Source: a bacterium (GTDB taxonomy: Bacteria; Vulcanimicrobiota; Vulcanimicrobiia; Vulcanimicrobiales; Vulcanimicrobiaceae). Taken from it: DNA of 64,000 bases. Below, piece after piece: positions 25,948-37,468 of the stretch. The position numbers were made by a program, and so were the translations under genes. The notes under the pieces are model-generated. The model ran no database searches, was not told the origin of the DNA, and was given only the letters and a program-made list of their open reading frames with translations. Each line of letters opens with the position of its first letter. The first letter of the stretch is position 1. The DNA lies in contig JAJYFL010000012.1 of NCBI GenBank assembly GCA_021790935.1, positions 1 through 64,000 on the forward strand, read 5' to 3'.

Positions 25948-26781
25948 CTAAGGGGCTTTCGGTGCGTGGCCCATGCCGGCAAAGATGCCGAGGGTGACGC
26001 CTCTTCGGCGGTAGACGACGGCGCCGCTGTTACGATCGCTTTCGGTTCCGTAATCGAGACCGACGTCGAAACCGAGCCGGGGATTCATCCAATGTTTGAT
26101 CGCCAGATCCACGGTGACCCCTCGATCGGCAAAGCGGCTTGCGATCGTGGGATCGTTAACGACGAAGACCGGCTGAACCCCGCTTTGCACGGTGAGACTC
26201 GTTACGGTGCGCCCGGGATCGCCCACCGAAACGTTCGCTAGGATGGCAGAGGCGGCGACCTGGCCCTGAGTCCAGATCGGTAAGTAGCGCACGGTAGCCG
26301 TTCCGTGGGGGAAATAATATGTCGGCCCAACGCTCAGGTAGCGTTGCATCAATCCGTTTGCGTAATGGTACATACCACCACCGGCACCGACTGCAAAGCG
26401 CGGTGCGACGGACATGTCGCCTTCCAGAAATGCACCCGTGGAGGGGAAGACGTTGCCGTCACCGATCTGCACCGCACCGTACAGGAAGGCGCGACCCGAT
26501 AACTGGTGATAGTCGTCGAGAACGTAGAATCGCCCGTTGTTTACGCTGCGGCCGTTACGATCGCTACGCGCGGTGAACGAGAGGCCCGGTTTATCGTTTC
26601 CGCTCACCGCACGATACGCTACGGTATCGAACTGCCACGGACCGTACGTCGCCTGTGGTGAGAAGACCAGGGTCGTAGCGCTCACGTCGACCGTCGCGGC
26701 GGGCTGATCGTCTGCGTAGGCCATCGACGCCGCGCAGAAGATGCACGCCAGGGCAATCGCAACGGCGAAGGCGACTCGCAT
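25948..26781 (-). CDS. YaiO-like outer-membrane beta-barrel protein
   Basis: A 277-residue secreted protein with a signal peptide (MRVAFAVAIALACIF to SMAYADD). The mature part has alternating hydrophobic strands ending in aromatic-rich turns (GPWQFDTVAYRAV, YLSVGPTYYFPHGTATVRYL, LGFDVGLDYGTES), which suggests a barrel of about 12 strands of the YaiO type. YaiO-like barrels occur next to surface-polysaccharide synthases. Here the gene is the last of a five-gene minus-strand run that contains a processive glycosyltransferase. ATG 26781 overlaps the preceding gene's stop by one base. The barrel prediction is by eye. Confidence 0.65.
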   Translation of the reverse strand: MRVAFAVAIALACIFCAASMAYADDQPAATVDVSATTLVFSPQATYGPWQFDTVAYRAVSGNDKPGLSFTARSDRNGRSVNNGRFYVLDDYHQLSGRAFLYGAVQIGDGNVFPSTGAFLEGDMSVAPRFAVGAGGGMYHYANGLMQRYLSVGPTYYFPHGTATVRYLPIWTQGQVAASAILANVSVGDPGRTVTSLTVQSGVQPVFVVNDPTIASRFADRGVTVDLAIKHWMNPRLGFDVGLDYGTESDRNSGAVVYRRRGVTLGIFAGMGHAPKAP

Positions 26782-27317
26782 CACGGATGCACCAGCGCAA
26801 ATGACGCCGCGCGATTCCGGAACCAACGAGCGGATGCCGCCTTCGTGGCGAGATCGGGTGGCTCGGCGATGTAGAACGCATTCCCATGGCCCACGAGATC
26901 GGCGAAGGTCGAGCGCCGCAGCGGTTTTCCATCGTCGCGTAGCGTACCCGCGTCTCGCACGACGCCCAGCACGCCCCCGTCGTCAACGTACTTGCGAACG
27001 ATCGGCTCGAGCTGCGGCGGCACGTAGCGTGCGATGCGATTGACGAAAAACAACGCGACGAAGCGGCTAGGCGGGCGCGAACCGGATACGAGCAGGAGTT
27101 CGTCCGTAGAGACCCACGTATAGGCAACGTGCTGCTCGGAAAGATAGCGGCTCCACATCGCTTGGGTCTGTGGATGCGCGGCGGTTTCGTCCGAATCGTA
27201 GACGAGCGCGGCGGTCGTCGACGGCGATGCCGAGAGCGACCAGAGCTGCCACGTCCGGTGGCCGATGATGGCCAGAAATGCGATAACGAAGATGGCGAGT
27301 ATCGTTCGACGATTCAT
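26781..27317 (-). CDS. Membrane-anchored protein of unknown function in the polysaccharide cluster
   Basis: A 178-residue protein with one N-terminal membrane helix (ILAIFVIAFLAIIGH) and a ~150-residue extracytoplasmic domain. Strings such as ALVYDSDETAA, VNRIARYVPPQLEPIVRKYVDDGGVLGVVRDAG suggest a Rossmann-like or glutamine-amidotransferase-like fold without a visible nucleophile. I do not recognise the family. It overlaps both neighbours (ATGA with the bactofilin-like gene, one base with the barrel gene), so it is part of the same translational unit and probably acts in the same envelope process. Confidence 0.7.
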   Translation of the reverse strand: MNRRTILAIFVIAFLAIIGHRTWQLWSLSASPSTTAALVYDSDETAAHPQTQAMWSRYLSEQHVAYTWVSTDELLLVSGSRPPSRFVALFFVNRIARYVPPQLEPIVRKYVDDGGVLGVVRDAGTLRDDGKPLRRSTFADLVGHGNAFYIAEPPDLATKAASARWFRNRAASFALVHP

Positions 27318-28291
27318 GCTATGGCCCGTCCTAACGGTTCGGTAACGACCCAGCCAAAAATCCGTACGTCGTTACCGAGTTCGAGATGTTTCCCACAGTA
27401 GACGCTCTTGTGTCCGACGGCGTTGCCGATCCGCGTGCCGTCTCCTAAGCGAAGATCTCCCTCGCAAAACAGATGCCCGCCGACCGTCACGGAGTCGCCG
27501 ATCCACGCATCCGCGCGTGCGATGACGTTGCCCTCGATCGCCGAGCCGCTACCGATGACGAGCGTGCCATGCGCCTTGACGCTGCCGCGAATGCGGCAGC
27601 CGTCTCCGATGCGCAGGTCGCGGCGGGCGATGAGGTCGCCGTCGACCTCCGCGCCGTCCGCGACGACCTCCGCATCGGTTCGGGTATGCGCGGGGGTGTT
27701 TGCCGTGGCGCCTGAAAGCGTCACGACCGGCAAACCGAAGGCGCGCCCGAAGCGCACGCCCGCAGCTAATTCGAGGCGTTGCGCCGTGGTCGCGGAGCTT
27801 CCGAGAACGGACCCGTGCCCAACGGTGATATCTCCCCTGGCATCGATCCAGCGATCGATACGACAATCTTCACCGAGGCTCATCGGGCCATCGCACAGCA
27901 GCGTTCGCGCGGAGACGCCGTTGCCGAGGAGCATCGTGCCGGCCGAATAGGCGTCGAGGACGCGCGCACCGTCGCCGAAGACGATGCATTCCTCGGCGAG
28001 CAAGACGTTTCGTTCCGTCTGCCCGTCTTTAACCTCGATCCTGGTATCGGCGTAGGCGTATTCCGACCGGCGGGAGAGAAAGCGCGCCAGGAAAGGCATC
28101 TGCCCGTGTGCTTCTTGCAGGTACGATCCGATCTTGGCACGCGACGATTCTCCAAAAAAGTGAGGGTCGCGCACGTAGCCCTGGTCGACATTTAGCGCTT
28201 TGCGGTCGCGCGGCCATACGATTTCGAGAAGGCCGGGTAAGAGCGGCAGCGCGAAGACCGTTGCAAAGACGACGACGCTAAGTAACAGCAT
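27314..28291 (-). CDS. Bactofilin-like hexapeptide/beta-helix membrane protein
   Basis: A protein of about 325 residues with one N-terminal membrane helix (LLLSVVVFATVFALPLLPG). A short linker follows, then from about residue 80 a run of short periodic turns rich in Gly/Asp (GDLIARRDLRIGDGCRIRGS, GHLFCEGDLRLGDGTRIG), as in bactofilins (polymer-forming cytoskeletal proteins) and hexapeptide acyltransferases. No acyltransferase His is evident, so a scaffold is favoured. Start uncertain: ATG 28291 overlaps the glycosyltransferase stop by 14 bases, while a GTG at 28354 would overlap by 77. It could position the polysaccharide synthase. Confidence 0.7.
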   Translation of the reverse strand: MLLLSVVVFATVFALPLLPGLLEIVWPRDRKALNVDQGYVRDPHFFGESSRAKIGSYLQEAHGQMPFLARFLSRRSEYAYADTRIEVKDGQTERNVLLAEECIVFGDGARVLDAYSAGTMLLGNGVSARTLLCDGPMSLGEDCRIDRWIDARGDITVGHGSVLGSSATTAQRLELAAGVRFGRAFGLPVVTLSGATANTPAHTRTDAEVVADGAEVDGDLIARRDLRIGDGCRIRGSVKAHGTLVIGSGSAIEGNVIARADAWIGDSVTVGGHLFCEGDLRLGDGTRIGNAVGHKSVYCGKHLELGNDVRIFGWVVTEPLGRAIA

Positions 28292-29543
28292 TGCGATCGC
28301 CTGAAGTTCGAGTGGTCTTCTCCCAAAGGGGCGAACGCCGCTTGAGACCGTCACCTAGCGTGTCGAGAAGCCCCGACGTTACCGCCCACGAATTGAACAA
28401 GAACAGGTAAAACAGGTACGGCAACAGGTATAGCCGCTGGCGCGCCCCGTCGAGGACCTCCGCGGCGCCGATCTCATAGATCGGCCCGAAGTTTCCAAAT
28501 GCGCTGTACGCAACCACGAAGAAGCCGAGTGCGACCGCCGACCATACCGAGAGCGCGCCCATCAAGAACAACAGCATGTTTGCCAGGAAGCCGCTCAGTA
28601 AGATCGGGGGGATTGCATAGACCGCAAGCGTGAGGATGCCATCACAGCGCTGCCGGAACGAAAGCCTTGGGGCGCGCAGCATGTTCGAGATATTGCGGTA
28701 GAGAGCGCGATTGTGCCCGCGCGACCACCGCCGAAGTTGGCGGAAGCGCGCCTCCCAGCTGATGGGGACCTCCTCGTAGCACTCCGCCCGGTTGGCGTAG
28801 ACGACCTTCCAACCGTTCGTAAAGAGCCGCGCTGTGAGATCGGTATCCTCGGCGAGCATCTGCGTATCGAATCCGTGCAGCGAGAGTACGACCGAGCGCC
28901 GAAATCCGCCGACCGTTCCCCCATACTGCGGAAACAGATCGAGATTGTAGCGCGCCTGCTGGTCGACCTGATACCCGCCGGACCGCTCTAGCGACAAGAG
29001 CCGCGTCAAGAGGTTTTGCGCCGTATTCTGCGGCACGACGCGCCCCATGACGGCGCCGACTTCGGGATCGACGAATGCCATCGCGAGCTCGCGCAGGATG
29101 CCGCGTCCCGGCGTGTAGTCGGCGTCGAAGACCATCACGATTTCGTTCGACGCCTCTTGAAGGGCGAGGTTGAGCGCGTTCGGCTTGCCGCGCAGGCCCG
29201 TAGACACGTGGAGCGGCTTCACGAACGCATATCGCTCGGCGTACTCGCGCAAAATCGCGCCCGTTCCGTCAGTGGAGTGGTCGTCGACCGGGATGATCTC
29301 CAAGAGGCTATGCGGATAATCTCCGAGCACGATGGCATCGAGCACGTTGCGCGCCACGGCCGCTTCGTCGTGCATCGGTACGATGACGGTCACCGGCGGC
29401 AAGTCGTTGTCGTAAAGGTCCTGGAAGTACGGCCGCTGGCGCATCATCATGCGATCGAGCGTAAAGTACCAGTGCCGCACCGCGTAGAGCGTCATGATGA
29501 CGACGACGAAGAGCACCCAGAGGTGCAATATCGTTACAACCAT
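28278..29543 (-). CDS. Processive family 2 glycosyltransferase (polysaccharide synthase)
   Basis: A 421-residue membrane glycosyltransferase with one N-terminal helix (LWVLFVVVIMTLYAV), a GT-A domain and three to four C-terminal helices. Processive-synthase motifs are all visible: DDHSTDGTG, DADYTPG (DxD), AEDTDLTAR (catalytic base) and QLRRWSRGHNRA (QxxRW). These are the motifs of cellulose, hyaluronan, chitin and poly-GlcNAc synthases. Which sugar is used cannot be told. No PilZ domain follows, so direct c-di-GMP control through this protein is not seen. ATG 29543 overlaps the upstream gene by 10 bases. Confidence 0.88.
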   Translation of the reverse strand: MVVTILHLWVLFVVVIMTLYAVRHWYFTLDRMMMRQRPYFQDLYDNDLPPVTVIVPMHDEAAVARNVLDAIVLGDYPHSLLEIIPVDDHSTDGTGAILREYAERYAFVKPLHVSTGLRGKPNALNLALQEASNEIVMVFDADYTPGRGILRELAMAFVDPEVGAVMGRVVPQNTAQNLLTRLLSLERSGGYQVDQQARYNLDLFPQYGGTVGGFRRSVVLSLHGFDTQMLAEDTDLTARLFTNGWKVVYANRAECYEEVPISWEARFRQLRRWSRGHNRALYRNISNMLRAPRLSFRQRCDGILTLAVYAIPPILLSGFLANMLLFLMGALSVWSAVALGFFVVAYSAFGNFGPIYEIGAAEVLDGARQRLYLLPYLFYLFLFNSWAVTSGLLDTLGDGLKRRSPLWEKTTRTSGDRNAVT

Positions 29544-30343
29544 TCCCAGGCTCCGACGCTCGCCTGCATGCGGCGCGATAGATACGCGAGTGCGATCGCG
29601 AAGATGCCGATGATCGGGATGATGTCCAGCAGCGGACCGTACAGGAGGAAGAGGTCCGACATCAAGATCGGTCCCGTGTGCGTGAGCAGAGCGGCGAAGG
29701 CTGCGTAACGCACGCCTTCGAGTAGAAAATCGTACGCCACGCACGCGACGATAATTGCCGCCGTCTCCCACGCCCGAAACGGAAACAGGGCCACCATCGC
29801 TCCCACGAAGGCCGGGATGACGAACCAGGTTACGATCATCGTTCGAAGCATCAGGACCGAGAAGCCGCGCGCGCTGTAGCCGAGATGCCCGGCGAAGAGC
29901 AGGTAGGTCGCCTCCGCGCAGACGATCAGGAGGTTAAAGTTGACGAAATAGCGCAGCGGCGCCGGAAGCGATTTGAGCACCGTAAAGAGGACGATGCCGG
30001 CAAGGCACGCCAGAATCCAGAGCACGAGTTCGAGATACCGGTGGACCGGCATCGTGAACGTGAGCGCCGTCAGCGCTTTCCCAAGGAAGGCGGTCGACTC
30101 CAAACCGACGGGAAAGCCCATGCGTTGCAATACCGATGCGTCGACCTGCGTGAGCGTTCGCGCGAGCGGGGCGAAGTAAAGGGCGAGAGCCAGCTCGACC
30201 AGCACCGTGCAGGCGAGCGCGGCGAACGCACCGGTTGCCGTCGAAGGCAGCGTGCGGTAGGAGCGGTGCGGAAGGATCGCTCGGCGCGCAACCGCCTCTT
30301 CGCGCGATGGGCTCGTACCGGCCGGTGCCTGAGCTGCGGTCAT
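29534..30343 (-). CDS. Polytopic membrane protein, first gene of the polysaccharide cluster
   Basis: A 269-residue protein with about seven hydrophobic helices after a ~35-residue cytoplasmic leader (for example AALACTVLVELALALYF, LELVLWILACLAGIVLF, YFVNFNLLIVCAEATYLLF, GPLLDIIPIIGIFAIALAYL). No motif identifies it. It is not an obvious flippase, O-acetyltransferase or exosortase. It overlaps the glycosyltransferase start by 10 bases and so is probably cotranscribed and functionally linked with polymer synthesis or export. The 176 bases upstream to 30519 hold no gene and may contain the cluster's promoter. Confidence 0.75.
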   Translation of the reverse strand: MTAAQAPAGTSPSREEAVARRAILPHRSYRTLPSTATGAFAALACTVLVELALALYFAPLARTLTQVDASVLQRMGFPVGLESTAFLGKALTALTFTMPVHRYLELVLWILACLAGIVLFTVLKSLPAPLRYFVNFNLLIVCAEATYLLFAGHLGYSARGFSVLMLRTMIVTWFVIPAFVGAMVALFPFRAWETAAIIVACVAYDFLLEGVRYAAFAALLTHTGPILMSDLFLLYGPLLDIIPIIGIFAIALAYLSRRMQASVGAWEWL

Positions 30344-31979: not shown

Positions 31980-32942
31980 ATGGAGCTAAAGCGCGGGAAC
32001 GAGGCGCTGGTACGATCGACGCTTGAGTCGAATCGGCGCGCTCAGATTGCGTCGGCGTTGGCAAAGCTCGCGCCGGATCACTGGATTCTCGGAACGTTCG
32101 ATGTTCGTTCGCGGCTCACGGGCGCGTTGGTCTCGGATGCAACGGTAACGCGGCGCTCGGCATACGATATGCTCTTCGTTTCGGGCGAGAGCGCGGCGGC
32201 GGAGGTCGTCTCGGCCACCGTCGCCACAAACGATGGCGGTGCGGTGCGGGTGCTGGCGCTCTACGATCGCGCTGGGAGCGGCCTGGCTCCGCCGGGCGCA
32301 GCCGATCTACTCGCCGCCATCGCCGAAAAATTGTTGGCGGACTCGGCTGTGCCGTTTACGGATGCATCGGAGTCGGAGGCGATCACGCGGCGGCACTGGC
32401 CGCATATCGCCATCTGCGAGTTGGACGCCCGCCTCCAAATGCTTGCCAGTTGGTTCCCGCAGAGAACGGCCGTTGCCGATCTCGTCGAACTCGTGAAACC
32501 CGCTGCTGACGGACGCCTGCCAGGCTACCTTCTGGACTCCGTGCGCGACATCGTCAAAGATTGGGATTGGAGCGACGCGAAACGCTGCCGCGAGCGTACC
32601 GCCTCCCCGGTGCCGGAGATTTTCTTGCGGGTCGTTCCGGCCGCGGCCGAGGGCGCCACGAGGGTCCTGGTGCTCTTCGAGGCGTTGCAAACTCGGCACG
32701 TGCTGCGAAAGGCCAGCCACTTTTACGGGATCTCTCAGCGCGAGGAGCAGGTGGTAGACTTTCTCCTCGAGGGACATACCATCGGCGAGATCGCGAGGGC
32801 GTTGGTCTTGGCCGAATCGACGGTGCAAGACCACGTCAAGCACGTCATCGCAAAGACGGGCTCGAACAATCGCGTGCAGATGGCCGCGCGGCTCCTCGGA
32901 TGGGCGTCGGGCACGAGAGCGGGCGATACGCCAAAACATTAG
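31980..32942 (+). CDS. LuxR-family transcriptional regulator with unassigned N-terminal sensor
   Basis: A 320-residue regulator. The last ~65 residues are a LuxR helix-turn-helix (YGISQREEQVVDFLLEGHTI, ARALVLAESTVQDHVKHVI). The first ~240 residues are not a receiver; predicted alternating helices and strands (LAVALYDRAGSG-like, FLRVVPAAAEGATRVLVLF) suggest PAS/GAF-like sensing, but no ligand site is recognised. It is transcribed towards the amyloid-like operon, which begins 98 bases after its stop. This makes it the best candidate for that operon's regulator. No obvious ribosome binding site. Confidence 0.82.
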   Translation: MELKRGNEALVRSTLESNRRAQIASALAKLAPDHWILGTFDVRSRLTGALVSDATVTRRSAYDMLFVSGESAAAEVVSATVATNDGGAVRVLALYDRAGSGLAPPGAADLLAAIAEKLLADSAVPFTDASESEAITRRHWPHIAICELDARLQMLASWFPQRTAVADLVELVKPAADGRLPGYLLDSVRDIVKDWDWSDAKRCRERTASPVPEIFLRVVPAAAEGATRVLVLFEALQTRHVLRKASHFYGISQREEQVVDFLLEGHTIGEIARALVLAESTVQDHVKHVIAKTGSNNRVQMAARLLGWASGTRAGDTPKH

Positions 32943-33040: not shown

Positions 33041-33700
33041 ATGCCCGTTTCACTCGCCACGTCCTCGAATCCGACCCCGCTGAAGATGGCGATCGCGAAT
33101 GCGTTCGCGGTCGCCACGCTTGTGGCGCTCTCCGGCGTACCGGCGACGGCACTGGCGGATGGACCCAAACGAACCAACTCCGCTCCGGCGGGGACCGACC
33201 AGGCGGTCATTGCGGGCCAGAGCTTCGATGGCGTTACGGGTGCGATACGGCTGAACCAAGCCGCCGGAAACGGTAACGCGCAAGCAAACGCGATCGTCAT
33301 CACCAACGGCGCCGGCGTAAAGCTTCGTCTGATACAGCAGACGGACGCAACCGGGACCGTGAACGGCCGCGCGTCGATCCTGGATCGAAGCTTCGCGGGT
33401 GCCGTCGGGGCCATTCAGGTCAATCAGAGCGCCGGCAACGGGAACGCTCAAGGCAACCTCATCCTCCTGGAGCTGGGCAGCGGCACCTCCGAACTGGACG
33501 ACGGCACGCTGCGTTCGATGGTCTCCGAGCAACAGACCGGCGGATACGCCGGACCGCACGGCACCAACGTCGCCGGCGTATCGCCGGGGGCGTTCTCGAA
33601 GGCGAGCGGCATCGTTCAGGTCGATCAGGTCGCCGGTACCGGAAACAGCACTGCCAATAGTTTCCATCTGCAGATCCAACTTGGGACCGGCGATCCGTAA
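33041..33700 (+). CDS. Secreted triple-repeat protein, candidate Fap minor/nucleator subunit
   Basis: A 219-residue protein with a signal peptide (MAIANAFAVATLVALSG to ATALADG). Three imperfect repeats of ~28 residues lie at about 61-88, 117-144 and 185-212, on the pattern SF-x-G-x-x-GAI-x-LNQ-AGNGNAQANAIVI, spaced by variable linkers. Gln/Asn ladders of this kind are typical of functional amyloids such as Fap and curli subunits. It lies first in a five-gene set ordered like fapA/B-C-D-E-F, and its repeats are related to those of the next gene. ATG 33041 follows AGAAGGGA; an upstream ATG at 33005 is in frame. FapA or FapB equivalence is unresolved. Confidence 0.7.
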   Translation: MPVSLATSSNPTPLKMAIANAFAVATLVALSGVPATALADGPKRTNSAPAGTDQAVIAGQSFDGVTGAIRLNQAAGNGNAQANAIVITNGAGVKLRLIQQTDATGTVNGRASILDRSFAGAVGAIQVNQSAGNGNAQGNLILLELGSGTSELDDGTLRSMVSEQQTGGYAGPHGTNVAGVSPGAFSKASGIVQVDQVAGTGNSTANSFHLQIQLGTGDP

Positions 33701-33732
33701 GGCCGGCCCAGTACTAGGAAAAGGAGAACCTC

Positions 33733-34392
33733 GTGAAACATACCATCAAGACCGGCCTTGCGTCCACGGCGCTTCTGGCGCTCGTCGCTGCGATGTCGGC
33801 TCCCGCTTTTGCCGACATACTCCCGAACCCGGTGACGTCGGTCCAAGCGAACGTACAGCTCTCGAAAAACGCGACCGTGAACGACGGCGACGGCAACCGC
33901 GCATCTGTCGGCCGCGAGGCGTTCGAATGGGCGACCGGGAACGTCGGCGCCAACGTCGCATCTGGAGACGGCAACCAGCAGGCCAACGCGATGTACATCG
34001 ATCAGGGTCACACCGGCTTCTCGCTCTTCAGCGGAACGGTTCAACTCCAGAAAGAGAATGACGTGACGGACTCCGGCTATCAGCGCGCTCGCGTCCGCGG
34101 CGACGCATTCCAGCACGCGAGCGGCAATATCGGCCTCAACGTCGCTGCCGGCAATTTGAACCAACAGTCGAACACGGCCGCGATCCTCAACCAGGATCAG
34201 CTCAACGGCCTCGTCGCCGGTACACTGCAAGGCGCAAATGACGGCGATTACTACAACAGCGACGACAACCACGCGGCGATCTCAGGAAATGCGTTCGAAC
34301 ACGCATCCGGTAACATCGGCGTGAACGTCGCCGGCGGAAACGGCAACCAGCAATCCAACTCGCTCGTGATCAACAACGCGGGCAGCCACTAG
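33733..34392 (+). CDS. Candidate major functional-amyloid subunit (FapC/FapB-like)
   Basis: A 219-residue secreted protein with a clean signal peptide (MKHTIKTGLASTALLALV to SAPAFAD). Three repeats of about 49 residues lie at 41-89, 103-151 and 163-213. Each ends in the highly conserved block AFEHASGNIGVNVAGGNGN then QQSNSLVI; linkers are short and Asp/Gln rich. Three Gln/Asn-rich repeats separated by linkers is the layout of Pseudomonas FapC. No Cys is present, so the CxxC seen at FapC C-termini is missing. AAAAGGAG (33719-33726) gives a strong ribosome binding site, fitting high expression. A hairpin follows the stop. Confidence 0.75.
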   Translation: MKHTIKTGLASTALLALVAAMSAPAFADILPNPVTSVQANVQLSKNATVNDGDGNRASVGREAFEWATGNVGANVASGDGNQQANAMYIDQGHTGFSLFSGTVQLQKENDVTDSGYQRARVRGDAFQHASGNIGLNVAAGNLNQQSNTAAILNQDQLNGLVAGTLQGANDGDYYNSDDNHAAISGNAFEHASGNIGVNVAGGNGNQQSNSLVINNAGSH

Positions 34393-34432
34393 ATAAGAGA
34401 CTCGGCATCCACTTCGGTAGATGTGCGATCGG

Positions 34433-34465
34433 CGGCTCGAGGAGAACGTGCTTCTCCTCGAGCCG
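34433..34465 (+). terminator. 14-bp hairpin between amyloid subunit and peptidase genes
   Basis: CGGCTCGAGGAGAA pairs perfectly with TTCTCCTCGAGCCG around the 5-base loop CGTGC, 41 bases after the subunit stop and 31 before the peptidase ATG. No T-run follows. It is more likely an attenuator or mRNA-stabilising structure, lowering downstream expression, than a full terminator. Confidence 0.65.
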
Positions 34466-34495
34466 TAACCCCAAGAACGCCAACGATTTAACAGC

Positions 34496-35230
34496 ATGGA
34501 GAGGGTGAATCGGCTCATGCGGAACGCGGGAAGGATAGCGATCTGGTGCGCGGCGGCGGCGATGCTGATGCCGGCACCCGTGAGCGCGCAGGACGGTGCC
34601 GTAGCCGGATTCATTCCGGGCGCCGGCCTGATCCGCGTCCCGGTCGTTTCGCTTCTGGGCGAGCACTTCTTCGGGATCGTCCGCCAGCACACCGATTACA
34701 GCTGCGGGGCCGCCTCGGTGGCGACGATCCTGCGCTACGCCTACGGCATGCCGGCGAGCGAAAACAGCGTGATCCGCGGCATGCTGCAGGTTAGCAACCC
34801 CGCAGTGGTCCGCGTGCGCGGCTTCTCCCTGCTAGATATCAAGCACTACGTGAACGCGCTCGGGCTGGTAGGCGCCGGCTATCAAGTGCCGCTCGACAAG
34901 CTGTTTGCGGTGAAGGTCCCGACCATCGCGCTGCTCGACGAGGACGGCTACGAGCATTTCGTCGTCCTGAAGAAGACGACGCCCACGTATACCTATGTAG
35001 CCGACCCGATACGTGGGAACCAGACCCTTCGGACATCCGAGTTCGCTCGCATGTGGAACGGGATTATCTTCATCATCGCCGCGTCGAGCTACCAGCCTTC
35101 GAACGTGCTCGTCCGCGTGCATGCGCCGCCGAGCCTGCGCCGGATGGCCGACGGCATACCTCCGGACACCAGCGTGCTCGCCAACGCCGTCCTCTCTACG
35201 ATCTACATTCCCGGCATCGACCGCTTATAG
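34496..35230 (+). CDS. fapD: Secreted C39-type papain-like peptidase (FapD-like)
   Basis: A 244-residue protein with a signal peptide (IAIWCAAAAMLMPAPVSAQ) and a C39 peptidase domain. Catalytic Cys70 is in QHTDYSCGAASVATILRY, His154 in DGYEHFVVLKK, and the Asp is in the following YVADPIRGN. Unlike bacteriocin-processing C39 domains it carries no ABC transporter, as in FapD, the periplasmic peptidase of Fap amyloid operons required for fibre export. Its position after the subunit gene and before FapE- and FapF-like genes fits. ATG 34517 is an alternative start. A stand-alone peptidase of other function is the alternative. Confidence 0.78.
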   Translation: MERVNRLMRNAGRIAIWCAAAAMLMPAPVSAQDGAVAGFIPGAGLIRVPVVSLLGEHFFGIVRQHTDYSCGAASVATILRYAYGMPASENSVIRGMLQVSNPAVVRVRGFSLLDIKHYVNALGLVGAGYQVPLDKLFAVKVPTIALLDEDGYEHFVVLKKTTPTYTYVADPIRGNQTLRTSEFARMWNGIIFIIAASSYQPSNVLVRVHAPPSLRRMADGIPPDTSVLANAVLSTIYIPGIDRL

Positions 35231-35255
35231 ACACGAACGGAGATTGGAACGGATC

Positions 35256-36161
35256 ATGATCGCGCACGACCCCAAAAAACTAAGAACGGCAGCTCGCCGC
35301 ATCGTCGCGTGCGGAGCGCTCGCTGCGTTTGCGGCGGCCGCGTGTGCGGCGCCCGCCTTCGCGGCCGGCACGAGCAATCCGTTTGCGATGTTCGCCGCGC
35401 TGCCGACGGTCGGCGACGCGCAGCTCGGGACGATGCGCGGCCGCTACGTCGTTCCGCACTCGGGTGGACCGGGCGCGGTCGCGGCGGCAACTGCGCTGCA
35501 GCCGGGCCCGGGCATCGCCGGCGCGACCGACGGCGTCTCCGCGGCATCGGTGGCGCGGTCCACGCATATGGCGGGCCCCTCCATCTCAGGGCTCGGCACG
35601 AGCGTCGTCTACTTCGGCGTTCAGATGACCAGCACGTGGCAAGCGTCCTCCGGCGGGGTGGCCGTCGGTCTGAACCTCGGTATCAACGTGCAGACGGATT
35701 CCGTAACGATCTCGACGTGGAGCTCCTCGAACAACGGCGGCCTGCCGGCGGGGCCCGCGACCGGCAATAGCGTAAATGGCGCCCCGCCGGTTTCGGGCAT
35801 CTCGAATGGGGTCGGTCAAAGCATTCAAGTCGCCGGCGACGGCAATACCGTCGTCAACGACGCCGGACTCGTCGTTACGCAGAACGCACCGGATGCGGTC
35901 ATCACGCCGACGACGACCACCTGCGGATCGACGTGCACGACCACGATAGGCGCAAACTCCGTGACGATCGCGATCGCGACGGCCCAGGGCACGGTCTCTC
36001 AGTCGATCGGGCCGGACGGCGTCCTGCAAACCGTTCAATTGAACGGCAACTCAAACCAGATCGAAAGCGACCTCAACATGCAGGCCCAAGTGGCTCCATC
36101 TACGGCATCCGGCATCGGCAACATCCTCCCGATCCTGCAGTCGCTGAACGGCCTGCCATGA
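35256..36161 (+). CDS. fapE: FapE-like secreted protein with Gln/Asn-rich motif
   Basis: A 301-residue secreted protein with a long N-terminal leader and signal helix (RRIVACGALAAFAAAACA to PAFAAG). The mature part has strand-like Ser/Thr/Gly-rich stretches, a single VGQSIQVAGDGNTVVNDAG motif related to the amyloid repeats, a CGSTC Cys pair near residue 227, and a C-terminal LQTVQLNGNSNQIESDL. FapE is a minor exported component in Pseudomonas. Here the assignment rests on order (between FapD- and FapF-like genes) and the shared Gln/Asn motif. ATG 35256 fits the leader; the stop overlaps the next ATG. Confidence 0.65.
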   Translation: MIAHDPKKLRTAARRIVACGALAAFAAAACAAPAFAAGTSNPFAMFAALPTVGDAQLGTMRGRYVVPHSGGPGAVAAATALQPGPGIAGATDGVSAASVARSTHMAGPSISGLGTSVVYFGVQMTSTWQASSGGVAVGLNLGINVQTDSVTISTWSSSNNGGLPAGPATGNSVNGAPPVSGISNGVGQSIQVAGDGNTVVNDAGLVVTQNAPDAVITPTTTTCGSTCTTTIGANSVTIAIATAQGTVSQSIGPDGVLQTVQLNGNSNQIESDLNMQAQVAPSTASGIGNILPILQSLNGLP

Positions 36162-37468
36162 ACGCCAAGAAACTGTTCGTCACGGCGATGCTGGGCTCGT
36201 TCGTTGCGAGTATCGTACCGTTGCCGGCGCTTGCCGCCACCACGACGAGCGCGCAGCGCTTAAGGGCGATGCAGCATCAGCTCGACGTGCTCAAACACAA
36301 GTACGACGTACAAGAACGGCAGATCAAGCAACTCGAGCGCCTCGTGCTCCGCTCGCACGGGCATCTCGCCGTGGCCAAGGCCAAACCGGCCGCACCCGCG
36401 CAGCCGGCACCCGCTCCAGCGGTGGCCGCGCGCGCGGCCGCGCCCGCACCGGCCCCCCAACCCGTAGCGGCTGCGCCACCCGCGCCGGCGGTGAGTTCGC
36501 TCGGCAAACCGGCGCCCCAGACGAGCAGCGAGAAGAGCATCTACGAGCAGCAGAACGCGCTCTTCCATCACGGCATTACGCTCACGCCGGGCATCGCCTA
36601 CACGTATGCCGACAACCGCTTCTTCACGCTCAATGGGTTCCTGGCGCTGGGCGCGATATTCTTGGGCAACGTCAACGTCAGCCGCCAGGAGAACTCGCTG
36701 GTCATCCCAAGCCTTACGGCCAACTACGGCGCCACCAACCGGCTGCAGTTCGATATGACGGTACCCTACGTCGAGCGTGCCTCGCTGTATAGCTCGGTCG
36801 GCGCGCAAAACTCGTCGGCGCTCGCAAGCGAAAAACGCTTCTTCGCAGGCGGTCTCGGCGATATCAGCACCGGCTTCTACTATCAGTTGCGCCAGCACCG
36901 GCTCGACAGCCCGAGCGTGATCCTCAACATGCACCTCGCCGTACCCACCGGGCGTAGTCCCTACGGCATCAAGATCGTTCAGGATCCAACCAACTCGAGT
37001 CTGTCGTACCCGACGCGGTTGCCGACCGGGCAGGGCGTCTACACGGTCTCCGCCGGAGCCACCATGATCAAGTCGGTCGATCCCGCCATCATCTTCGGCG
37101 GCTTCAACTACTACCACAGTATCCCCGGGCACTTCGGCGACATCAGCGTGAACGCGGGTCAAGTCCAGCCCGGCACGGTCGCTCCCGGCGATGCGTATAG
37201 CGCCACGTTCGGCACGGCCTTCGCCTTGAACGACCGCATGAGCCTTACGTTTTCGTTCCAAGATACGATGGTCGGGCCGACGCGCGTCCACCCGAACGGC
37301 CTAGCGTGGCAGAGCATCGCCGGCAGCGAGATCAACGCAGGCGTACTGAACATCGGAACGACCTACGCCATCAACAAACGGGTATCGTGGCAGGCGCTGG
37401 TGGGTATCGGGGTCACGCAAGACGCCCCGAACATGACGCTGAATCTTCGCTTCCCCGAAAATTATTGA
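36158..37468 (+). CDS. fapF: Coiled-coil/beta-barrel outer-membrane exporter (FapF-like)
   Basis: A 436-residue protein. A signal peptide (MNAKKLFVTAMLGSFVASIV to PALAAT) is followed by a heptad-like coiled coil at residues ~30-62 (QRLRAMQHQLDVLKHKYDVQ and on). A Pro/Ala-rich linker of ~50 residues comes next, then a beta-barrel of about 300 residues with alternating strands and Tyr/Phe belts (GITLTPGIAYTYADNRFFTL, LGDISTGFYYQLRQHRL), ending in NLRFPENY. This matches FapF, the trimeric amyloid export pore with an N-terminal coiled coil. It is the last gene of the operon; the ATG overlaps the previous stop. It converges on leuS. Confidence 0.75.
   Translation: MNAKKLFVTAMLGSFVASIVPLPALAATTTSAQRLRAMQHQLDVLKHKYDVQERQIKQLERLVLRSHGHLAVAKAKPAAPAQPAPAPAVAARAAAPAPAPQPVAAAPPAPAVSSLGKPAPQTSSEKSIYEQQNALFHHGITLTPGIAYTYADNRFFTLNGFLALGAIFLGNVNVSRQENSLVIPSLTANYGATNRLQFDMTVPYVERASLYSSVGAQNSSALASEKRFFAGGLGDISTGFYYQLRQHRLDSPSVILNMHLAVPTGRSPYGIKIVQDPTNSSLSYPTRLPTGQGVYTVSAGATMIKSVDPAIIFGGFNYYHSIPGHFGDISVNAGQVQPGTVAPGDAYSATFGTAFALNDRMSLTFSFQDTMVGPTRVHPNGLAWQSIAGSEINAGVLNIGTTYAINKRVSWQALVGIGVTQDAPNMTLNLRFPENY

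What the first reader, a model, noticed from the sequence alone, without database searches (positions are those of the whole stretch)
33041..37468. A Fap-type functional-amyloid operon in an apparently non-proteobacterial genome
Five consecutive plus-strand genes encode: a secreted triple-repeat protein; a second secreted protein with three Gln/Asn-rich repeats; a secreted stand-alone C39 peptidase with intact Cys70/His154; a secreted protein with one related Gln/Asn motif; and a signal-peptide plus coiled-coil plus Pro/Ala-linker plus beta-barrel protein. This is the order and architecture of fapB/A-C-D-E-F. Fap systems are described mainly from Proteobacteria, so a divergent set here would be an unrecognised branch. 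Seen: motifs, order, overlaps. Inferred: amyloid formation and host lineage.
Basis: partly seen in the sequence, partly recalled or inferred. Interest (0 to 1): 0.85.

Follow-up and report, generated by a model that had tools for sequence, protein, structure and literature searches.

The report
Fap amyloid operon in Eremiobacterota
This uncultured bacterium, from a phylum far from Pseudomonas, carries a complete five-gene kit for building the sticky protein fibres (functional amyloid) that Pseudomonas uses in biofilms, and comparing the two kits suggests where the kit's own protease cuts.

Summary
Window 33041-37468 (+) is fapB-C-D-E-F, without fapA. Every gene matches its own NCBIfam Fap model (E 8e-18 to 5e-93). 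FapF matches the FapF crystal structure (predicted fold), and FapC matches the FapC fibril structures.

The host is a Candidatus Eremiobacterota (Vulcanimicrobiota) genome. FapF and FapE occur together in the same 8 of 149 genomes of that phylum, in five genera of one family. The Eremiobacterota FapF proteins form one clade (100/100) inside the Fap family. Whether the operon was inherited or transferred is unresolved (AU p = 0.12).

Fap outside Proteobacteria is already published, but I found no paper that names Eremiobacterota: a new member of a known kind.

The comparison also gave a mechanistic lead. All 21 FapE proteins examined carry hxDxxLxxhRG[K/R][Y/F], or a near match, shortly after the signal peptide, in the register of the double-glycine leaders that C39 peptidases cut. 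FapD-like genes elsewhere are flanked by secreted proteins with the true RGG version. This marks FapE as the likely FapD substrate, which the papers I read leave open. No cleavage was tested.

The parts
33041..33700 (+). fapB: secreted minor/nucleator amyloid subunit, three Fap repeats (third with Asn to Asp)
   Evidence: NCBIfam FapB NF058557 E 1.7e-20; repeats; conserved in related operons
33733..34392 (+). fapC: secreted major amyloid subunit, three exact Fap repeats spaced 62 aa; GTG start
   Evidence: NCBIfam FapC NF058558 E 4e-28; PDB FapC fibrils 9u4u E 3.5e-17, profile 9nqd E 3e-25; low-confidence AF2 model has 9u4u as its only significant PDB match, E 1.6e-5
34496..35230 (+). fapD: Sec-exported stand-alone C39 cysteine peptidase, catalytic C70/H154/D170, Q64
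   Evidence: Pfam Peptidase_C39 4.9e-20; NCBIfam FapD NF058616 3.7e-55; catalytic residues conserved
35256..36161 (+). fapE: secreted fibre-associated protein with two Fap-like stretches and an Eremiobacterota-specific CX3C
   Evidence: NCBIfam FapE NF058559 8e-18; found in the same 8 genomes as FapF; alignment A3
35409..35447 (+). proposed FapD recognition/cleavage site in FapE: V52-GDA-Q-L57-GT-M60-R-G62-R63|Y64 (register -12 to +1 of a double-glycine leader)
   Evidence: 21 of 21 FapE carry the motif; RGG version in genes flanking FapD-like genes elsewhere. Cleavage itself is inferred
36158..37468 (+). fapF: outer-membrane amyloid-subunit transporter: signal peptide, coiled coil 31-72, Pro/Ala linker, plug helix 123-131, beta-barrel
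   Evidence: NCBIfam FapF NF058560 5e-93; PDB FapF 5o65 4.3e-69; AF2 plus Foldseek 5o67/5o65 E 3e-24, TM 0.84-0.88 by target
31980..32942 (+). LuxR-type (GerE) regulator directly upstream; likely regulator of or cotranscribed with fap (inferred)
   Evidence: Pfam GerE 2e-9; homolog near fap in another genus, L017
31040..31702 (-). NarL/FixJ-type response regulator, divergent; neighbours fap in three of five genera
   Evidence: Pfam Response_reg 1.8e-11 and GerE 6.6e-19; L017, L021, L022
25948..30343 (-). putative exopolysaccharide cluster (PgaC-like GT2, beta-helix/bactofilin-like protein, YaiO-type outer-membrane barrel), near fap here and directly adjacent in L022

Best explanation
The operon is a complete, functional-looking fapBCDEF system in an Eremiobacterota bacterium. 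Sec exports all five proteins. FapF forms an outer-membrane barrel (trimeric in Pseudomonas) with a plug helix hung from a periplasmic coiled coil. FapC (major) and FapB (nucleator) pass through it unfolded and stack their three repeats into cross-beta fibres outside the cell, with FapE as a minor fibre or anchor component. FapD, a periplasmic C39 peptidase, licenses secretion by cutting FapE at a double-glycine-like leader, RG[K/R]|[Y/F] (R63|Y64 here, or one residue earlier). LuxR-type regulators and a neighbouring exopolysaccharide cluster point to use in a biofilm matrix. Shown: homology, catalytic residues, repeats, fold, operon conservation and motif conservation. Inferred: secretion, amyloid formation, regulation and the cleavage event (the last at about 0.5-0.6).
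For: Every gene hits its own Fap model. Solved-structure matches: FapF 5o65 E 4e-69 and FapC 9u4u/9nqd. Foldseek of the two predicted models returns FapF and FapC as best hits. In all seven other genomes of the family that carry FapF, fap genes sit in the same order B-C-D-E-F; two operons are cut at a contig end, L019 lacking fapB and L021 starting within fapB. The barrels fall inside the Fap clade, apart from FapF-like outgroups (100/100). The FapE leader motif is in 21 of 21 FapE. Co-directional neighbours of FapD-like genes carry the motif at 25 per 10,000 aa against 1.3 elsewhere in the same loci. Published: the FapD active-site Cys is essential for FapC secretion, and FapE alone shows complete N-terminal loss by mass spectrometry (PMC5557850).
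Against: None of the NCBIfam equivalog cut-offs is reached (FapF 312 bits against 700), although most Pseudomonadota Fap-clade FapF also miss it. The FapC model has low confidence (pLDDT 43). At P1 FapE has mostly Arg/Lys where C39 substrates have Gly, and I found no Fap-specific acidic residue in FapD that would explain it. Expression and fibres are unknown for this uncultured organism.
Confidence: 0.9

Rival explanations
1. It is a FapD/FapF-like secretion system of the FilB/FilC kind (C39 peptidase plus barrel plus repeat proteins) that is not a true Fap amyloid system.
For: FapF also hits FilC (7e-18) and FapD hits FilB (1e-31); such D/F-only systems are common in the Pseudomonadota sample.
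Against: Fap models beat Fil models by far (FapF 5e-93, FapD 4e-55). FapB, FapC and FapE are all present. The barrel lies in the Fap clade, not with the FapF-like rows. The D/F-only loci give no FapB, FapC or FapE hit.
Confidence: 0.03
2. The operon is a recent transfer from, or a binning contaminant of, an acidophilic proteobacterium.
For: The nearest FapF outside the phylum are two Pseudomonadota (support 90/84); fap is in only 8 of 149 genomes of the phylum.
Against: Eight genomes form one clade at 100/100 with deep branches. The adjacent leuS is 67-78% identical to other genera of the family and only 46-50% to those Pseudomonadota. GC matches the surroundings. The genome is 98.8% complete with 0.12% contamination. 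An old transfer is not excluded: monophyly of Pseudomonadota Fap is not rejected (p = 0.12).
Confidence: 0.05
3. Within the Fap mechanism, FapD cuts the FapF linker rather than FapE, and the FapE motif is a structural element.
For: Suggested in PMC5557850 because GG/GA motifs precede the barrel in Pseudomonas FapF and linker peptides are missing in mass spectrometry.
Against: The window FapF has no GG or GA between coiled coil and plug (residues 73-122; sequence). The leader motif is in all 21 FapE and in neighbours of FapD-like genes in 14 of 14 FapD/FapF-like loci, and the one locus without a FapD-like gene nearby has none.
Confidence: 0.2

Closest known systems
fapABCDEF of Pseudomonas (UK4, PAO1)
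   Same: Gene order B-C-D-E-F; three-repeat FapC with the published minimal repeat; C39 FapD with conserved catalytic residues; FapF barrel, plug helix, coiled coil and PTG motifs
   Different: No fapA; FapF barrel about 32% identical; FapC lacks the C-terminal CXXC described for some Pseudomonas (PMC3684753); FapE has CX3C; regulator and exopolysaccharide neighbours not compared in Pseudomonas
Fap operons in other phyla (Desulfobacterota, Nitrospirota, Bacillota; PMC12822426)
   Same: Fap operon in a host outside Pseudomonadota
   Different: Eremiobacterota not named in the text; I could not compare sequences from those phyla directly
FilB/FilC-type and other FapD/FapF-like loci
   Same: C39 peptidase plus FapF-like barrel; neighbours with a leader motif (RGG)
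   Different: No FapB, FapC or FapE hit; barrel in a separate clade
Curli (Csg)
   Same: Works alike: secreted nucleator and major amyloid with repeats, dedicated outer-membrane pore, LuxR-type regulator nearby (CsgD analogy, from general knowledge)
   Different: Unrelated proteins and pore; no Csg protein was found among the matches here

Membership tests
[quoted passage not shown]
   Five, in order B-C-D-E-F within 4.4 kb
Fap system (criteria of PMC6173800/PMC12392863) | FapB and FapC each with about three GX4NX3GX6N repeats | tested here: met
   FapC 3 of 3 exact; FapB 2 exact plus 1 with N to D
Fap system (criteria of PMC6173800/PMC12392863) | FapF: plugged barrel with periplasmic coiled coil, homologous to 5o65 | tested here: met
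   Trimer not tested
Fap system (criteria of PMC6173800/PMC12392863) | FapD: exported C39 peptidase with catalytic Cys/His | tested here: met
   export inferred from the signal peptide
Fap system (criteria of PMC6173800/PMC12392863) | FapE present | tested here: met
   8e-18; same 8 genomes as FapF
Fap system (criteria of PMC6173800/PMC12392863) | FapA (optional; its absence is the commonest published variant) | tested here: not met
   No FapA hit in G000 or relatives, while the model finds FapA in two positive-control genomes. Not required by the published definition
Fap system (criteria of PMC6173800/PMC12392863) | Extracellular SDS-resistant amyloid fibres | not testable with these tools
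   Needs expression and ThT/Congo red/EM
NCBIfam Fap equivalog models (strict naming) | Score above the curated equivalog cut-off | tested here: not met
   FapF 312 of 700 bits, FapD 187 of 330, FapC 99 of 195, FapB 73 of 190, FapE 65 of 250. In the 398-genome Pseudomonadota sample only 7 FapF pass; the other Fap-clade FapF score 340-679
FilB/FilC pilus-like system | Best match to Fil models and membership of the FapF-like clade | tested here: not met
   Fil scores far below Fap; clade placement
C39 double-glycine leader (applied to FapE) | Hydrophobic -12, Leu -7, hydrophobic -4, Gly -2, small residue at -1 (PMC6363468) | tested here: inconclusive
   -12, -7 (Leu or Met) and -2 met in 21 of 21; -4 hydrophobic in 18 of 21 (Gln in 3); -1 is R/K/E/H, not Gly

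The most novel reading that the evidence does not exclude
FapD-family peptidases recognise a double-glycine-type leader placed after a Sec signal peptide. FapE is their substrate in all Fap systems, with RG[K/R]|[Y/F] replacing RGG|F. Eremiobacterota hold a deep, vertically maintained branch of Fap that is linked to an exopolysaccharide module.
Probability: 0.5. Interest if true: 0.65.

Novelty: new member of a known kind. Interest (0 to 1): 0.5.

Why it matters
It puts a complete Fap amyloid system in a largely uncultured phylum that NCBI places in the kingdom Bacillati, far from Pseudomonas, which bears on the 2013 view that Fap is young and restricted to Proteobacteria. The deep divergence also works as a filter. 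A conserved island near the FapE N-terminus is a double-glycine-like leader, which gives a concrete and cheap test of what FapD cuts; PMC5557850 and PMC6173800 call this undetermined, and PMC12822426 says only that FapD is thought to process FapE and FapF.

Tried and rejected
(1) Viral-contig scan for FapF relatives: none. (2) Plasmid collection: only Pseudomonadota homologs at 25-36% identity. (3) Pfam alone does not recognise FapB, FapC or FapE, and FapF only as a weak Phenol_MetA_deg match, so Pfam alone would leave B, C, E and F unnamed. (4) FapE has no solved relative. (5) Promoter and terminator scans: nothing clearly above shuffled expectation, and no promoter-like site near fapB. (6) AU test of Pseudomonadota Fap monophyly not significant, so I make no claim about transfer direction. 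(7) LeuS tree too weakly resolved among genera to test congruence with FapF. (8) Looked for a Fap-specific acidic residue in FapD to explain Arg/Lys at P1: none. (10) FapA of two Pseudomonas-type genomes also shows an LxDxDIxxIxSG stretch, but mass spectrometry in PMC5557850 finds FapA unprocessed, so it was not added to the claim.
Full report
OBSERVATION. Each of the five hits its own NCBIfam Fap model and no other family better: FapB 1.7e-20, FapC 4.2e-28, FapD 3.7e-55, FapE 7.9e-18, FapF 5e-93. The repeats are real. The published minimal Fap repeat (GX4NX3GX6N, PMC3792158) occurs three times in FapC at exact 62-residue spacing and twice in FapB, with a third copy carrying Asp for Asn; shuffled sequences give 0.05 and 0.02.

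STRUCTURE. By sequence, FapF matches the crystallised Pseudomonas FapF barrel at 4.3e-69 and FapC matches the two solved FapC fibrils at 3.5e-17 and 4.5e-15, improving to 3e-25 with a family profile. AlphaFold2 on window and relatives gives FapF a signal helix, a coiled-coil helix 31-72, a low-confidence Pro/Ala linker, a plug helix 123-131 and a barrel; Foldseek returns all FapF crystal chains first (E 3e-24, TM by target 0.83-0.88), then the COG4313 channel. The FapC model is of low confidence (pLDDT 43) but shows three similar beta layers, and its only significant PDB match is the FapC fibril 9u4u.

HOST. The window lies in a 2.65 Mb genome, 98.8% complete with 0.12% contamination. The neighbouring leuS is 67-78% identical across genera of this family and only 46-50% to Pseudomonadota, so the contig is not a proteobacterial contaminant.

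DISTRIBUTION AND TREE. FapF and FapE models were searched independently in 149 genomes of the phylum; both are found in the same 8 genomes, in five genera of one family. In all of them the fap genes sit in the order BCDEF, two operons being cut by contig ends (L019 lacks fapB, L021 starts within fapB). fapA was not found in this genome or its relatives, while the model detects fapA in two positive-control genomes. A maximum-likelihood tree of 41 barrels puts the Eremiobacterota proteins in one clade (100/100) inside the Fap family and apart from FapF-like outgroups (100/100); its sister is a pair of Pseudomonadota with moderate support (90/84). Monophyly of Pseudomonadota Fap is not rejected (p-AU 0.119), so inheritance versus an old transfer is open.

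VARIATION WITHIN THE BRANCH. FapC carries 3 repeats in the window genus, 4 in two other genera, 12 in a third (882 aa, L018) and 3 split by a 400-residue Ser/Asn linker in a fourth (L023). The published survey finds three repeats in about 94% of FapC (PMC12392863), so this family is unusually variable. Six of six aligned Eremiobacterota FapE share a CX3C absent at that place from the 19 Pseudomonadota FapE checked.

NEIGHBOURHOOD. A LuxR-type regulator ends just upstream of fapB, and a NarL-type response regulator is divergent from it; response-regulator homologs flank fap in two more genera. A cluster with a PgaC-like glycosyltransferase, a beta-helix protein and a YaiO-type barrel lies at 25948-30343; the same set is immediately divergent from fapB in another genus (L022). 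I read this as a biofilm-matrix locus; that reading is inference.

MECHANISM AND THE FapD QUESTION. FapD must be proteolytically active for FapC secretion, its target is described as unclear, and FapE is the only Fap protein whose mature N-terminus is lost (PMC5557850; PMC6173800). Aligning FapE from both phyla exposes one conserved island soon after the signal peptide: hydrophobic(-12), Asp(-10), Leu/Met(-7), mostly Met/Ile/Leu/Val(-4), Arg(-3), Gly(-2), Arg/Lys(-1), Tyr/Phe(+1). Leu/Met(-7), Gly(-2) and Tyr/Phe(+1) are met in 21 of 21 FapE, and Arg(-3) and Asp(-10) in 19. This is the register of C39 double-glycine leaders, whose hydrophobic -12, -7 and -4 residues sit in the protease groove (PMC6363468). 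As an independent check I fetched 15 loci with a FapF-like barrel in Pseudomonadota. In 14 of 14 with a FapD-like gene nearby, co-directional genes on one or both sides (most often both) carry the motif, usually with a true RGG (for example LAETELAALRGG, LSDPELADYRGGF). The one locus without a FapD-like gene has none. The rate is 25 per 10,000 aa in FapD neighbours against 1.3 in all other ORFs of those loci. The regex was written after I had looked at the sequences, so the contrast is descriptive, but the twenty-fold enrichment, the position next to FapD and the shared register are hard to get by chance. The weak point is P1: FapE has Arg/Lys where C39 enzymes take Gly. Cleavage may fall after Gly(-2), or FapD may differ; I found no Fap-specific acidic residue in FapD. 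A second loose end is that the published mass spectrometry lacks peptides over about the first 70 residues of FapE, more than this leader alone would remove in Pseudomonas. The competing idea that FapD cuts GG in the FapF linker finds no GG or GA in the window FapF linker (sequence).

KNOWN OR NEW. Fap was first reported as restricted to Proteobacteria (PMC3792158); fapD/fapF pairs were later noted in five other phyla (PMC6173800); a GTDB v226 scan found operons in Desulfobacterota, Nitrospirota and Bacillota (PMC12822426). Eremiobacterota are not named there, and no paper in the library holds both 'Eremiobacterota' and 'amyloid', although those scans may well have caught these genomes. I file the locus as a new member of a known kind. 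The leader motif is the part I would call new; I found no description of it in the papers read, but subscription papers, supplements and preprints are outside what I could read.

Noticed in passing
L018:10160-12808 (-): FapC of a related Eremiobacterota genus has 12 Fap repeats (882 aa), against three in about 94% of published FapC.
   Followed up: partly
L078-L092 (Pseudomonadota FapD/FapF-like loci): FapD-like genes are flanked by small secreted proteins with a double-glycine leader (xxxELxxxRGG); a D/F secretion system of unknown product, apparently common.
   Followed up: partly
L101:7005-7478 (-); L076, L077: A protein in the fapA position carries SLEDGDLASIRGRF, and Pseudomonas-type FapA has LxDxDIxxIxSG: FapA may share the FapD-recognition motif.
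   Followed up: partly
window 35256-36161, FapE C223/C227: CX3C in all six aligned Eremiobacterota FapE, absent at that place from Pseudomonadota FapE checked, while the window FapC has no Cys.
   Followed up: partly
window 25948-30343 and L022:8020-13470: Putative exopolysaccharide synthesis/export cluster (GT2, beta-helix, YaiO barrel) associated with fap in two genera.
   Followed up: partly
L023:5274-6959 (+): FapC with a roughly 400-residue Ser/Asn-rich low-complexity linker between repeats 1 and 2.
   Followed up: no
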